Shown here: piece after piece, positions 2,333-18,121 of the stretch
How the letters are laid out: each line of letters opens with the position of its first letter
How positions within the stretch are numbered: the first letter of the stretch is position 1
DNA from: Alphaproteobacteria bacterium
GTDB lineage: Bacteria; Pseudomonadota; Alphaproteobacteria; Puniceispirillales; Puniceispirillaceae
DNA length: 35,255 nt
Direction of reading: 5' to 3'
Assembly (NCBI GenBank): GCA_018666135.1
Contig: JABJAN010000061.1
Location: forward strand, 1-35,255
The notes under the pieces: model-generated
Told to the model about the DNA's origin: nothing
The model's database searches: none
Seen by the model: the letters and a program-made list of their open reading frames with translations, nothing else
Position numbers and translations under genes: made by a program

Positions 2333-3688
2333 TCAGCGACTTGGAGAACGCATTGTAACAAATTCTTCTGCTGCTGTTGGATGAATTCCAACTGTAGCAT
2401 CAAAATCTGATTTAGTTGCCCCCATTTTCATTGCGATTGCAATACCTTGCATAATTTCGGCACAATCTGGTCCAACCATATGCGCACCCAGCACTTTATC
2501 GGTTTCCGCATCAACGACCAATTTCATATAGCTTTTTTCTTGCCTGCCAGAAATCGTATTTTTCATTGCTCGAAAACGTGATTCATATATTTTGATTTTT
2601 TTGCCCTGCTGAATGGCATCTAACTCACTGATGCCTACACACGCTATTGGAGGCTGGCTGAAAACAGCAGATGCTATCATATCATATGACATAACACGCG
2701 GATTATCCCCATAAAAACTATCCGCAAAAGCATGCCCTTCGCCAATAGCTACAGGGGTTAAATTAACCCTATCTGTTACATCCCCAATTGCATAAATAGA
2801 GGGAACTGAAGTTTGCGCATCTTCTGAGACTATAATTTGTCCGACAGGTCCTGTTTTTATCCCAACTTCATCAAGACCAAGAGAATGTGTATTTGGCTTT
2901 CTGCCTGTTGCAGATAAAATCTGGTCTGCAATGATAGTCTCTTGTGTGTTTAACCATATTGTCTGTTTTCCAGATTCTGCTTCGACTTTTGTTATTGATG
3001 TTTGCGGGTGAAGTATAACCCCTCTATCAACAAGACACTCCGCAATATGCTCTCTTACATTTTCATCAAACCCACGAAGCGGAAAATTACTCCTGTAAAT
3101 CAAATGTGTTTTACTTCCAAGAGCAGCAAATATACCTGCAAATTCCAAAGCAATATACCCACCACCATGAATTACGATGGTCTCAGGCAATTCATTTAAA
3201 TCAAGTGCCTCATTTGAAGTTATGGCATTTTCTGCCATGCCAGGAATATCCAAAATTGTTGGCATACCGCCAACAGCAATTAAAATTCTCTTAGCAGATA
3301 TAGTTTTGTCATTAACCAAAATTTCGTGCGGACCTGCTAATTTTGCAGCTCCAGAGATTAGATTGACACCAGAATTCTTCAGAAGATTTCTGTAAATTCC
3401 CTCAAGCCTATCAATTTCAATATCCTTAGCTGATATCAGAGATGACCAATCATGCTGTACGCCTGAAATTTGCCATCCAAACCCCTTCGCATCTGTCAGC
3501 TCATGTGCAAAGCTTGAGCCATAAACCAGCAGCTTCTTGGGAACACATCCTCTAATAACGCAGGTGCCGCCAGGACGATCCTTTTCAATTACAGCAACTT
3601 TTGCCCCATGCGAGGCAGCAATCCGTCCAGCTCTTACCCCTCCTGAGCCTGCGCCAATAACAATCAGGTCATAATCATAGCTTTCCAT
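2333..3688 (-). CDS. gor: Glutathione-disulfide reductase
   Basis: This 451-residue flavoprotein reduces oxidised glutathione with NADPH in the cytosol. The FAD-binding GAGSGG lies at residues 12-17. The redox-active disulfide is in GGTCVIRGCVPKK (Cys44 and Cys49), the glutathione-reductase variant of the motif. The NADPH-binding fold is GGGYIALEFAGIFAALGS near 175-192, followed by YRSNFPLRGFD, whose arginines favour NADPH over NADH. The C-terminal GIHPTAAEEF supplies the active-site His-Glu pair, and the dimerisation domain is complete. The ATG at 3688 has AGGAG seven bases upstream. It lies 190 bp before the DAHP synthase gene and probably belongs to a separate transcription unit. Trypanothione or mycothione reductase would be the alternatives, but motif and context favour glutathione. 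Confidence 0.95.
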   Translation of the reverse strand: MESYDYDLIVIGAGSGGVRAGRIAASHGAKVAVIEKDRPGGTCVIRGCVPKKLLVYGSSFAHELTDAKGFGWQISGVQHDWSSLISAKDIEIDRLEGIYRNLLKNSGVNLISGAAKLAGPHEILVNDKTISAKRILIAVGGMPTILDIPGMAENAITSNEALDLNELPETIVIHGGGYIALEFAGIFAALGSKTHLIYRSNFPLRGFDENVREHIAECLVDRGVILHPQTSITKVEAESGKQTIWLNTQETIIADQILSATGRKPNTHSLGLDEVGIKTGPVGQIIVSEDAQTSVPSIYAIGDVTDRVNLTPVAIGEGHAFADSFYGDNPRVMSYDMIASAVFSQPPIACVGISELDAIQQGKKIKIYESRFRAMKNTISGRQEKSYMKLVVDAETDKVLGAHMVGPDCAEIMQGIAIAMKMGATKSDFDATVGIHPTAAEEFVTMRSPSR

Positions 3689-3798
3689 GGCAACTCCTAC
3701 CCACTTCCATAATTCAATGGTCTTCTATTAGCCCATTTACGATAGTGTTGTCGAGAAAGCTTGTATTAAATTGTTCGATTGTGGGTTAGTTATGCGTT

Positions 3799-3996
3799 TT
3801 AAATACCTTTAAGAAATTCAAGAGATAGGTGATTATTATCATCTTCGTCCTCATTTCCCTTTGCTCTATCCTGTTGAACAGCAAATTCCTTTAATAATAA
3901 ATTCTGAGCAAAATTACTTACTAATTGGCTCAGTCCAAAGTTGTTTAAATTACAGATAGAACGTTTTATAAAATAACTTACTGATTTTTCAGTAGA
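3799..3996 (-). other. In-frame open continuation downstream of the TGA of the small gene at 3997-4263
   Basis: Directly after the TGA at 3997-3999 the same frame stays open for 65 sense codons until TAA at 3799-3801. The translation begins STEKSVSYFIKRSICNLNNF, continues with a helix-like GLSQLVSNFAQNLLLKEF, and ends in an acidic tail. It has no ATG, GTG or TTG codon, so it is unlikely to be a separate gene. In such AT-rich DNA a 65-codon open run is uncommon by chance. I read it as the lost or conditionally translated C-terminal part of the upstream gene. Confidence 0.45.
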
Positions 3997-4263
3997 TCAA
4001 ACGCCAATTCCATCAATTGAAAATGCAAATGAATCTTCATCCATCATGCCTGCTAAAAATGATTTAATCATAAAACATTCATCTTTCATAGAAAGTGACC
4101 CGTGAATAAAAACAATGTCATCAACACAGGTTTCTTCTAAATGAATTATCACCCCTGTAATATGGGGAATATAGATCCAATGCCCCTCCTCTAATTTATA
4201 AAAGTTAGTTGGCATTTTATTATCTAGGCAATCAGCAATGAGTTGACTAAGTTTGGTTTTCAC
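3997..4263 (-). CDS. Small hypothetical protein, possibly CesT/YbjN-like, probably truncated by an in-frame TGA
   Basis: The chosen start is GTG at 4263, because GGAG lies exactly six bases upstream; the longer frame from TTG at 4338 has no ribosome-binding site. The product is 88 residues, beginning MKTKLSQLIADCLDNKMPTN. The visible pattern is an N-terminal helix, then alternating strands (WIYIPHITGVIIHL, DDIVFIHGSLS), a helix (ECFMIKSFLAGMM) and a strand (SFAFSID). That order resembles the alpha-beta fold of CesT/YbjN-type small chaperone-like proteins; this is a fold-level inference, not a family match. The frame continues for 65 codons beyond the TGA with a strand and amphipathic helix that would complete such a fold, so this may be a nonsense-mutated gene. 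No secretion genes are nearby. Confidence 0.5.
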   Translation of the reverse strand: MKTKLSQLIADCLDNKMPTNFYKLEEGHWIYIPHITGVIIHLEETCVDDIVFIHGSLSMKDECFMIKSFLAGMMDEDSFAFSIDGIGV

Positions 4264-4490
4264 TTTTTTCTCCAAATATAAAAAAGTTAAATTGACCAGA
4301 TTTTGTCTCTTTTCACAATTATTCTGCTGTACTATCAAAATGGGTAAGTTAATTTATTTATTTGAAAATTGAGAATAGTGATTATCATCGAATTTTTTAA
4401 ATAAAGCGGATTGGCAAAAATAAAAATCAATGCTTAATTATCAAACACCGCATTCATAAAAAATAAATTATTACCAATCAGGGAATTACA

Positions 4491-6443
4491 ATGACACCCA
4501 ACCCAATTTTATGGCACCCGTCGCGCGCACAAATTGATAATGCTGAAATAACAGATTTTGCTAATTGGGTAGAACGTAATCATGGGTTCAACTGGCAACA
4601 AGTTTATAATCGTCTGTGGTCTTGGTCAGTTGAACATTCTGATTTATTCTGGAAATCAATTTGGGATTGGCATGGTATTATAGGACATCAAGGGGAACGC
4701 ATATTGATTAACCCTGATAAAATCCCAGGTGCTCAGTTTTTCCCAGATGCCACATTAAATTTTGCTGAAAATTTACTTCAGCAGGCAGATGATCAGATCG
4801 CCATTTCAAGCCATCATGAAAAAGGCACCTCAGAACAGCTAACTCGGGCAACTCTTAAACATGATGTGATGGCGCTTGCAGGTTGGATGCAATCCAAAGG
4901 GGTTGGCAAAGGAGACAGAGTTGCTGCCTATATCCCAAATATACAACAAGCCGTGGTAACAATGCTGGCAACTGCCTCCCTTGGTGCCATCTATTCTAGC
5001 TGCTCTCCTGATTTTGGATTTAACGGTGTTTTTGACCGTTTTAGTCAAATCGAGCCTAAAATACTTGTTACAATTGATGGCTATTTCTATGCTGGCAAGA
5101 AAATTAACAGGGCAGATATAATTCTCCAGCTTGGCAAAAAATTACCTAGTCTTAAGCATATTCTAGTTCATAATTATATTGGAGATGCTTCTGATTTAAT
5201 TTCTAACCAGAATATATCATTATATTCAGATGCCCTAAATCACGCACCGATAACTGATTTTGTACCTGTTAAATTTAACGATCCGTTATATATTTTATAT
5301 TCATCTGGCACGACAGGCGTACCAAAATGCATTCTGCATAGCGTAGGTGGCACTCTTGTTCAACATATCAAAGAGCACCGTCTTCACTCAAATGTCAGAC
5401 AAAACTCGTCTGTATTTTATTTTACAACTTGTGGATGGATGATGTGGAACTGGCTTGTATCTGCGCTTGCCCTAAAGGCTAAAATTGTTTTGTTTGAGGG
5501 CAATCCATTCTATCCTGGACCAGAACGACTTTGGCAAATGGCTGAAAGTGAAAAAATTAATTTATTTGGAACTTCTGCTAAATATATTGATGCTGTTCGA
5601 AAATCTGGTTTGAAACCAAATGAAATTGTTGATTTAAGCCACCTTGAGCTATTGTGTTCTACTGGCTCACCTCTAAATACAGAAGGGTTTGATTTTATAT
5701 ATGAACATGTATGCCACTCTCTTCAGCTTGCCTCTATATCAGGTGGCACAGATATTGTGTCCTGCTTTGTACTTGGCTGTCCTATAAGACCTGTCTATGC
5801 TGGTGAAATACAGTGCCGCGGATTGGGCATGGATGTGGTAATTCTTGCAGAAGATGGCTCTGCCCTTACTGAAGAACAAGGTGAGTTATGCTGCAAATCT
5901 GCGTTTCCATCGATGCCAATTGGTTTTTGGAATGACAAAGATGGTCAAAAATATCACCATGCCTATTTTGATAGCTATAAAAATATATGGCGACATGGCG
6001 ACTGGGCAACGCTTACAAAGCAAGATGGTATTATTATTCATGGAAGATCAGATGCAACGCTAAATCCTGGTGGGGTTCGAATTGGCACTGCTGAGATTTA
6101 CCGTCCGGTTGAATCATTTGATGAAATAATAGAAGCGTTAGTAATTGGTCAGTCATTCGAGGATGATGTTCGTATAATATTATTTGTACGATTAAAAGAA
6201 GGGGTGATTCTTGATGATGAATTGCGCGACAAGCTCAAAAAAGAAATAAGAGCAAAGGCAACCCCAAGGCATGTACCAGCTATCATTTGTGCAGTTGCAG
6301 ATATTCCGCGAACTCGTTCTGGTAAAATCACTGAACTAGCTGTAAGAGATGTAATCCACAATCGTTCTGTTAAAAATACAGAAGCACTGGCGAATCCTGA
6401 AGCCTTGAAATTGTTTGAACATTTGCCAGAATTAGCACTGTAA
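4491..6443 (+). CDS. Acetoacetyl-CoA synthetase (acetoacetate-CoA ligase)
   Basis: This 650-residue ANL-superfamily enzyme activates acetoacetate with ATP and CoA, feeding ketone bodies or PHB-derived acetoacetate into central metabolism. The N-terminal acetyl-CoA-synthetase-like cap includes FPDATLNFAENLL near 84-96. The adenylate-forming P-loop is YSSGTTGVPK at 270-279. SGGTDIVSCFV, HGDWA and GRSDATLNPGGVRIGTAEIY follow, and TRSGKITEL holds the C-terminal catalytic lysine (Lys612), the usual site of regulatory acetylation. The pattern GGTDIVSCF and the N-terminal WHPSRAQI are typical of acetoacetyl-CoA rather than acetyl-CoA synthetases. The ATG has AGGGA seven bases upstream. The gene stands alone, converging on the hypothetical gene at 6509, with a 227-bp region upstream shared with the small gene at 3997-4263. 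Confidence 0.93.
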   Translation: MTPNPILWHPSRAQIDNAEITDFANWVERNHGFNWQQVYNRLWSWSVEHSDLFWKSIWDWHGIIGHQGERILINPDKIPGAQFFPDATLNFAENLLQQADDQIAISSHHEKGTSEQLTRATLKHDVMALAGWMQSKGVGKGDRVAAYIPNIQQAVVTMLATASLGAIYSSCSPDFGFNGVFDRFSQIEPKILVTIDGYFYAGKKINRADIILQLGKKLPSLKHILVHNYIGDASDLISNQNISLYSDALNHAPITDFVPVKFNDPLYILYSSGTTGVPKCILHSVGGTLVQHIKEHRLHSNVRQNSSVFYFTTCGWMMWNWLVSALALKAKIVLFEGNPFYPGPERLWQMAESEKINLFGTSAKYIDAVRKSGLKPNEIVDLSHLELLCSTGSPLNTEGFDFIYEHVCHSLQLASISGGTDIVSCFVLGCPIRPVYAGEIQCRGLGMDVVILAEDGSALTEEQGELCCKSAFPSMPIGFWNDKDGQKYHHAYFDSYKNIWRHGDWATLTKQDGIIIHGRSDATLNPGGVRIGTAEIYRPVESFDEIIEALVIGQSFEDDVRIILFVRLKEGVILDDELRDKLKKEIRAKATPRHVPAIICAVADIPRTRSGKITELAVRDVIHNRSVKNTEALANPEALKLFEHLPELAL

Positions 6444-17115: not shown

Positions 17116-17781
17116 TTAATTCTCATCAAGAAAATTAAGTCCCTCATTCTTGTTTGAAAAAAATTTCAAAGGAACAATACTTGGACCAAAATTTGGCAGA
17201 TCAAAAAATCCATAAACGCCATACGATATATCCCACCCCATCGAACCACCTGAGTAATCACCAACACTGATCAAATAACCCTTATTACAACTAACTCCAA
17301 TATTGGGCGCCAAATCTGAACATCTTTTATTGCTAATGGGCCCAAGTATTCTATAAGAATATTCGATATCGTATCCATCTGACGAGTGTTTTATCCAGAC
17401 GTCTCCGTCTCGATCCTCAAAGTCAAATTTTTCTGGGGAGCATTGCTCAATTTGTGCTGTCAGAGAGATTTTCTCGCAGACACCATCATTCTGGCACCAA
17501 CTTGGTCTTATGGGCGCAAAATTGGAAATTGAACTACCCATGAAGTGCCCAGGATCTTTGAAAAATTGTCCTAATTTTTTGATCCCAAAAACATCCGCAA
17601 ATTCTTCAAAATTATCGCCTGACATCCATGGTCTATTAAAGCAAAACGGATGAATAATTCTTTTGTTGATGTTCCATCCTAATAATGGATTATCGTCCGT
17701 CTCTGGCGCCGCGCCATTTATTGACAGAATTGTCCATCCACTATCTATCTTATTATACCAAATTGATCCCCTACCAAGCAT
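17116..17781 (-). CDS. C-terminal fragment of a frameshifted secreted protein
   Basis: This 221-residue frame starts at an internal Met. Upstream of that ATG the same frame still codes DNAPCPPVGWRGF before meeting a TAG at 17824-17826, where it abuts the end of the preceding ORF in the other frame. Removing one base at 17823/17824 joins the two into one 334-residue protein. The fragment is rich in Trp, Gly and Asp and has several cysteines (SWCQNDGVC, CSDLAPNIGVSC), which suits an extracytoplasmic beta-rich protein with disulfides. I do not recognise the family. The segment GWRGFMLGRGSIWY reads as a conserved-looking core. Nothing suggests an independent ribosome-binding site, so separate translation is doubtful. 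Confidence 0.6.
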   Translation of the reverse strand: MLGRGSIWYNKIDSGWTILSINGAAPETDDNPLLGWNINKRIIHPFCFNRPWMSGDNFEEFADVFGIKKLGQFFKDPGHFMGSSISNFAPIRPSWCQNDGVCEKISLTAQIEQCSPEKFDFEDRDGDVWIKHSSDGYDIEYSYRILGPISNKRCSDLAPNIGVSCNKGYLISVGDYSGGSMGWDISYGVYGFFDLPNFGPSIVPLKFFSNKNEGLNFLDEN

Positions 17782-17815
17782 GAATCCGCGCCATCCAACA
17801 GGGGGACAAGGTGCA

Positions 17816-18121
17816 TTATCTGCCTAGTACCTGTTCTATCCATTCTTCATTAAATACTTCTTTGAAAGTCTTGTTTGTAACAGATTGTTTTCTTGGACCA
17901 TTTTGTAATTCGCCTTGGACCAGCGAAAAAATTCCGGACAGGTCTTTATTTGAAACTAAATTTTGGATTTTAACGCCAAAAGCGTATGCATCTGTTGGAG
18001 CATAGTAATTTTGCCAGAAATCTGCGTAGTCTTGATCTTCGCTGCTACATTCATTCGCTATTACTGGCGAAATAAAGGAAATAAAAAAACAAAACAGAAG
18101 TGAAAATCTAATAAATCCCAT
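17816..18121 (-). CDS. N-terminal fragment of a frameshifted secreted protein, with signal peptide
   Basis: The 101-residue frame begins with a clear Sec signal peptide, MGFIRFSLLFCFFISFISPV, with cleavage expected after VIANE/ECS or VIA-N (residues 21-24). The mature part, DQDYADFWQNYYAPTDAY onward, is helical and soluble-looking and ends EEWIEQVLGR at a TAA (17816-17818). Deleting one of the paired C bases at 17823/17824 converts the end to VLADNAPC and continues into the 221-residue downstream frame. AGGTGG lies about 12 bases before the ATG. The whole locus is therefore one periplasmic or secreted protein gene split by a +1 frameshift, either by real mutation or by sequence error. The function is unknown. 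It lies 75 bp downstream of glmS on the same strand. Confidence 0.65.
   Translation of the reverse strand: MGFIRFSLLFCFFISFISPVIANECSSEDQDYADFWQNYYAPTDAYAFGVKIQNLVSNKDLSGIFSLVQGELQNGPRKQSVTNKTFKEVFNEEWIEQVLGR

What the first reader, a model, noticed from the sequence alone, without database searches (positions are those of the whole stretch)
3799..4263. Small gene interrupted by an in-frame TGA, with 65 open codons after it
A GTG start with an ideal GGAG at six bases leads to 88 codons, a TGA, then 65 sense codons in the same frame before TAA. The downstream part has no ATG, GTG or TTG, so it is not a separate gene. Its predicted strand and helix would complete an alpha-beta fold like CesT/YbjN small chaperones. 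A six-pair hairpin (TACTGA, AAAA loop, TCAGTA) begins two bases after the TGA. TGA is a normal stop elsewhere here (mrdA, gor), so this is a nonsense mutation, a sequence error, or readthrough/recoding. The hairpin does not look like a standard bacterial SECIS (no GU apical loop, wrong spacing), so selenocysteine is unlikely.
Basis: partly seen in the sequence, partly recalled or inferred. Interest (0 to 1): 0.55.

Follow-up and report, generated by a model that had tools for sequence, protein, structure and literature searches.

The report
Nonsense-broken small marine bacterial gene
A small gene of unknown function in an ocean-type bacterium carries a premature stop codon where a close relative has a tryptophan codon, and since other relatives have further broken or missing copies it looks like an ordinary gene being lost rather than a case of special decoding.

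Summary
A full-length orthologue in a same-genus genome (G006, 50% identical) has TGG at the TGA. A second same-genus genome (G007) has TAG there, plus an earlier TGA and a frameshift. Four more genus members keep the flanking aacS and gor genes but lack this gene. The family is old: 49 of 136 genomes of the order match, and 7 of those 49 show in-frame stops (six judged true disruptions). Most family members examined have Cys at the TGA site (TGT, 25 of 30 loci), a pattern selenoproteins show. But selA matches none of the 10 genus genomes, selB never reaches its cut-off, all eight tRNA-Sec-like hits in the window's genome are ordinary tRNAs, and that genome has no selD over cut-off. Its tRNA-Trp is canonical and RF2 is present. 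The hairpin is of a common kind, and G006 has a similar one beside a sense codon. Verdict: probably a recent nonsense pseudogene of an unannotated family; a consensus error is not excluded. Low interest.

The parts
3799..4263 (-). Interrupted gene, GTG to TAA, 154 sense codons and one TGA
   Evidence: orthologue in G006 aligned over its full length
3997..3999 (-). In-frame TGA, codon 89; TGG in G006, TAG in G007, TGT in 25 of 30 family loci
4000..4263 (-). 88 codons before the stop; the product expected if UGA terminates
3799..3996 (-). 65 open codons after the stop plus TAA; matches the family C terminus
4270..4273 (-). GGAG ribosome-binding site, six bases before GTG
   Evidence: sequence
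3979..3994 (-). Six-pair hairpin after the TGA; judged ordinary
2333..3688 (-). gor (glutathione-disulfide reductase), downstream on the same strand
   Evidence: TIGR01424 over its cut-off; syntenic in relatives
4491..6443 (+). aacS (acetoacetate--CoA ligase), divergent neighbour
   Evidence: TIGR01217 over its cut-off; syntenic in relatives

Best explanation
The feature is a pseudogene in an early stage. An old small gene, transcribed away from aacS and towards gor, has a stop at codon 89 that is one base change from TGG (G006) and from TGT (most of the family). Translation is inferred to end after 88 residues, which would remove the last strand and the C-terminal helix of a chaperone-like (CesT/YbjN-like) fold, so the product is probably non-functional. 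The rest of the frame is still open because the change is recent. The gene is lost repeatedly: it is missing in four genus members and carries stops and a frameshift in G007. Shown: the stop, the intact orthologue, broken and missing copies, the synteny. Inferred: loss of function, recency, the ancestral codon.
For: G006 orthologue open, 50% identity over 2-146, TGG at the site. G007 orthologue: TAG at the same codon, an earlier TGA, frameshift near codon 100. aacS and gor next to each other without the gene in G002, G004, G008, G009. A gor+aacS protein tree puts the window's genome outside (G006,G007) and the four genomes without the gene, supports 98-100. G006 against G007 (NG86): dN 0.246, dS 0.582 in this gene, against 0.046/0.301 in gor and 0.033/0.360 in aacS. 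Seven of 49 matching genomes of the order show an in-frame stop; six judged disrupted (and for the window and G007). tRNA-Trp canonical, RF2 present.
Against: The window copy has only this one lesion. After the TGA there is no excess of change on the window branch: 1, 3 and 1 window-only against 2, 2 and 3 G006-only changes with three outgroups (small numbers). Third-position differences still dominate after the stop (24 against 12 and 11 in 42 codons). This fits a very recent stop, but equally an error or readthrough.
Confidence: 0.8

Rival explanations
1. Consensus or assembly error, or one allele in the population: the gene is intact in most cells and the TGA is a wrong or minority base.
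For: A single lesion with an otherwise conserved frame on both sides. The genome is a draft in 134 contigs.
Against: The same codon is a stop (TAG) in G007, and the gene is broken or missing in other relatives, so a real nonsense change would not be surprising. No reads could be examined.
Confidence: 0.13
2. Functional UGA readthrough by near-cognate tRNA-Trp, giving some full-length protein.
For: The aligned codon in G006 is Trp. No sign of relaxed constraint after the stop. A hairpin follows the stop.
Against: tRNA-Trp has anticodon CCA and, by my reading of its sequence, a 5-pair anticodon stem, A9 and G24; PMC13092985 (passages only) links a 4-pair stem, A9C and G24A to UGA readthrough. 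RF2 is present, 525 bits against a cut-off of 370. A stem at this place arises in 6.3% of synonymous shuffles, and G006 has a similar hairpin beside a sense codon. G007, with TAG at the site, is broken elsewhere too.
Confidence: 0.05
3. Selenocysteine: TGA encodes Sec where homologues have Cys.
For: 25 of 30 family loci have Cys at the column, and the downstream neighbour is a redox gene.
Against: selA: 0 of 10 genus genomes. selB: 0 of 10 over the cut-off. tRNA-Sec: over the cut-off in 4 of 10, not in the window's genome; two of those four were scanned and are tRNA-Ser(TGA); the eight sub-threshold hits in the window's genome coincide with ordinary tRNAs. selD: over the cut-off in 6 of 10 relatives, not in the window's genome. 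The nearest orthologue has Trp.
Confidence: 0.01
4. The gene naturally ends at the TGA and the 65 open codons are chance.
For: A stop at that codon in two genus members.
Against: None of the other 28 of 30 loci has a stop at this column. Codons 90-131 match G006 at 27 of 42 positions. Chance of 65 open codons 0.0057.
Confidence: 0.01

Closest known systems
Nonsense pseudogene in a lineage that is losing the gene
   Same: Single in-frame stop; intact orthologue with a sense codon; further broken copies and absences in relatives
   Different: The parent family has no match over cut-off in Pfam, NCBIfam or PHROGs; only one lesion so far
Class I type III secretion chaperones (SycT, VecA, SycH, CesT) and YbjN proteins
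   Same: Predicted fold of the intact G006 orthologue: SycT 2bho Z 11.7, rmsd 2.9, 108 residues; YbjN 6vu7 Z 7.6, rmsd 3.4, 117 residues
   Different: 9% and 11% identity in those two rows; no Pfam match in 24 members; neighbours gor and aacS
Selenoprotein genes with Cys homologues
   Same: TGA aligned with a family Cys
   Different: selA, selB, selC and selD not found in the window's genome; nearest orthologue has Trp; hairpin ordinary

Membership tests
Nonsense pseudogene | Orthologue has a sense codon at the stop and runs on to a matching C terminus | tested here: met
   G006 TGG, full-length match; TGT in 25 of 30 family loci
Nonsense pseudogene | Gene broken or missing in close relatives | tested here: met
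   G007 has three lesions; gene missing between aacS and gor in four genus genomes, three further genus genomes not assessable
Nonsense pseudogene | Relaxed constraint or further lesions in this copy | tested here: inconclusive
   No further lesion; relative-rate counts small and not different
Nonsense pseudogene | No full-length product | not testable with these tools
   needs proteomics or ribosome profiling
Selenoprotein | Cys homologues at the TGA | tested here: met
   25 of 30 loci, though not the same-genus orthologues
Selenoprotein | selA, selB, selC and selD in the genome | tested here: not met
   genome 92% complete
Selenoprotein | Bacterial SECIS after the TGA | tested here: inconclusive
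   No Rfam family over its gathering score in the window; hairpin of ordinary frequency; no dedicated SECIS model was run
CesT/type III chaperone | alpha-beta-beta-beta-alpha-beta-beta-alpha fold | tested here: met
   Model of the G006 protein, mean pLDDT 70.9, from 4 sequences; SycT Z 11.7. The topology label is recalled
CesT/type III chaperone | Match to a family profile | tested here: not met
   24 members against Pfam at E up to 1: no CesT or YbjN model. NCBIfam: SpiC in 2 of 24 at best E 0.065, weak
CesT/type III chaperone | Cognate effector or secretion genes nearby | tested here: inconclusive
   Neighbours tested are gor, aacS and DAHP synthase; no genome-wide search for a secretion system was run

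The most novel reading that the evidence does not exclude
The UGA is decoded at low level (as Trp or Cys), so that a mostly truncated, partly full-length chaperone-like protein is made; the lack of any sign of relaxed constraint after the stop does not exclude it.
Probability: 0.04. Interest if true: 0.5.

Novelty: new member of a known kind. Interest (0 to 1): 0.15.

Why it matters
It makes a possible recoding case unlikely: a Cys-to-TGA pairing beside a redox gene looks like a selenoprotein until the machinery and the close relatives are checked. As a by-product it shows a small protein family without a name in the libraries searched, with a predicted type III chaperone/YbjN-like fold, kept beside gor and aacS in a family of Alphaproteobacteria and lost repeatedly.

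Tried and rejected
Family searches: the window's two parts and the joined protein in Pfam, PHROGs and NCBIfam gave only a PHROG at E 0.3. Four homologues and then 24 members in Pfam gave DUF7894 in one member at E 0.024, below its cut-off. 24 members in NCBIfam gave only weak hits, SpiC the best at E 0.065 in 2 of 24. Profiles against PDB sequences gave nothing better than E 0.49 and 0.74. The viral contig scan found no relative. The first scan of genome contigs found none, the second, with alignment A1, found three loci.

Hairpin as recoding signal: not supported. Selenocysteine: rejected. Weak hits in G004 and G009 outside the aacS-gor interval (E 0.248 and 0.0244) were set aside as chance. 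YN00 failed and NG86 gave no dS for window against G006, and dS in gor and aacS for that pair is saturated (2.3 and 1.7), so no dN/dS is given for the window. Promoter scan: 4 sites against 4.5 expected; no terminator.

Literature: one search on SAR116 pseudogenes (five papers listed; passages of PMC8547437) and one on UGA readthrough (8 of 23 papers listed; passages of PMC13092985). No search was made for the protein family itself, so I do not claim it is absent from print.

Rows dropped: the 30 loci are the best 30 of the 37 matches. Alignment A3 holds 24 of those 30; the window, G007, and four others (L049, L052, L066, L067) were left out.

Full report
What is there. The frame lies on the minus strand: GTG at 4263, GGAG six bases before it, 88 codons, TGA at 3999-3997, 65 sense codons, TAA at 3801-3799. 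A run of 65 open codons has probability 0.0057 under a local dinucleotide model. TGA is a usual stop here: 6 of 29 frames that I took as real genes end in it. The neighbours are gor (glutathione-disulfide reductase) and aacS (acetoacetate--CoA ligase), named by NCBIfam over cut-off.

Orthologues. A search of 61 genomes (the window's own and 60 relatives) found matches in 6. In the same genus, G006 has an open frame of 152 residues, 50% identical, whose ATG aligns with the window's GTG and whose codon at the TGA is TGG. G007 has TAG at that codon, TGA at an earlier codon and a frameshift near codon 100. Of the 10 genus genomes three carry the gene (window, G006, G007). Four (G002, G004, G008, G009) have aacS and gor next to each other with 273-430 bases between the matches, against 802-818 in the three carriers. 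G001, G003 and G005 could not be judged, because gor (all three) and aacS (the first two) did not reach the threshold there.

Tree. Concatenated gor and aacS proteins, rooted on G019, place the window's genome outside ((G006,G007),(((G008,G004),G009),G002)), supports 98-100; G005, with aacS only, falls outside them all. By hand, a genus ancestor with TGG, TGT or TGA each needs three changes, so the ancestral codon is open.

The family. A profile of five sequences finds the gene in 37 of 61 genomes of the family, and a deeper one in 49 of 136 genomes of the order. In the 30 best loci, both gor and aacS were found in 23 and one of them in the other 7, where the fetched stretch may end; the gene is on the strand of gor wherever gor was found. 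At the TGA column the 30 loci have TGT 25, TGG 1 (G006), TGA 1 (the window), TAG 1 (G007), GCC 1 (G019), TTT 1 (G080). The stretch ARDGSGPL, nearly invariant in the family, has changed in both G006 and the window, so the gene had already drifted in this genus. In one search, 7 of 49 genomes with a match show in-frame stops: G000, G007, G018, G029, G065, G076, G079. I count six as disrupted; the stop in G018 lies at the N-terminal edge and may precede the true start. G007, G076 and G079 carry more than one lesion.

Selection. Between the window and G006, amino acids differ at 43 of 87 positions before the stop and 15 of 42 after it (codons 90-131); third positions differ most in both parts. Relative-rate counts show no excess on the window branch in either part (before: 8 against 7, 6 against 4, 7 against 4; after: 1 against 2, 3 against 2, 1 against 3). 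So the stop is recent, or wrong, or read through. Between G006 and G007 the gene has dN 0.246 and dS 0.582, a higher ratio than gor or aacS, as expected for decay in G007.

Recoding tests. selA: 0 of 10 genus genomes; 1 of 14 controls over the cut-off. selB: 0 of 10 over the cut-off; 2 of 14 controls. tRNA-Sec: over the cut-off in 4 of 10 (48 bits, gathering score 47), 5 of 14 controls; not in the window's genome. Two of those four were scanned and are tRNA-Ser with anticodon TGA. The eight sub-threshold hits in the window's genome coincide with tRNAs for Ser, Leu, Trp, Phe, Cys, Arg and Lys. selD: over the cut-off in 6 of 10 relatives, inside open frames of about 760 codons, but not in the window's genome (best 36.5 bits, cut-off 125). 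None of the 25 tRNAs found in G000 has anticodon TCA; that list lacks tRNA-Ile, -Asp and -Tyr, so it is incomplete and this point alone is weak. tRNA-Trp is CCA with a 5-pair anticodon stem, A9 and G24 by my reading; PMC13092985 (passages) links a 4-pair stem, A9C and G24A to UGA readthrough. RF2 is present.

Hairpin. Perfect stems of six pairs or more with loops 3-8 occur 1.6 times per 465 bases in 17 window genes; synonymous shuffles give one at this place in 6.3% (window) and 7.7% (G006) of 2000. G006 has AACCGC-AAA-GCGGTT at nearly the same place beside TGG. If independent, the joint chance is about half a percent, a figure chosen after the fact. G007 has no such perfect stem there. Folding of the stretch is not exceptional (z -1.38 window, -0.61 G006, 0.64 G007).

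Fold. A model of the intact G006 protein from four sequences (mean pLDDT 70.9; residues 59-69 and 130-152 low) has helix, strands, helix, strands, helix. Best matches are type III secretion chaperones: Foldseek VecA 9ux0 E 4.1e-4, and SycT 2bho by VIA-align Z 11.7, rmsd 2.9, 108 residues. YbjN 6vu7 has Z 7.6, within the range the tool calls common. Codon 89 lies in the strand at 86-90; the truncated product would lack the strand at 94-102 and the last helix. A shared fold shows no function.

Verdict. Most likely an ordinary, recent nonsense pseudogene of an unannotated but conserved family. A consensus error cannot be excluded without reads; recoding is unlikely. That these genomes belong to the SAR116 group is my inference from recall; no call names the window's organism.

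Noticed in passing
window 17116-18121 (-): Two adjacent frames on one strand (17816-18121 with a signal-peptide-like start by eye, and 17116-17823 open) overlap by eight bases in different frames; perhaps one secreted-protein gene broken by a frameshift. No Pfam match over cut-off.
   Followed up: partly
window 3747-3762 (-): Block AAGCTTTCTCGACAAC upstream of gor; its core is conserved in the seven genus genomes aligned, with and without the gene; perhaps the gor promoter.
   Followed up: partly
window 4410-4436 (+): Block with TTGGCA upstream of aacS; its core is conserved in the seven genus genomes aligned; promoter-like by eye.
   Followed up: no
family column of the TGA (30 loci): All 25 Cys codons at this column are TGT, none TGC, across several genera; not tested against codon usage.
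   Followed up: no
window 3979-3994 and L013 4597-4611: The window and G006 both carry a six-pair hairpin just after the same codon, with different sequences and a register shifted by about one base.
   Followed up: yes
L120 and the other selD hits: selD lies in a frame of about 760 codons in six of ten genus genomes but is not over the cut-off in the window's genome; selA matches none of the ten.
   Followed up: partly
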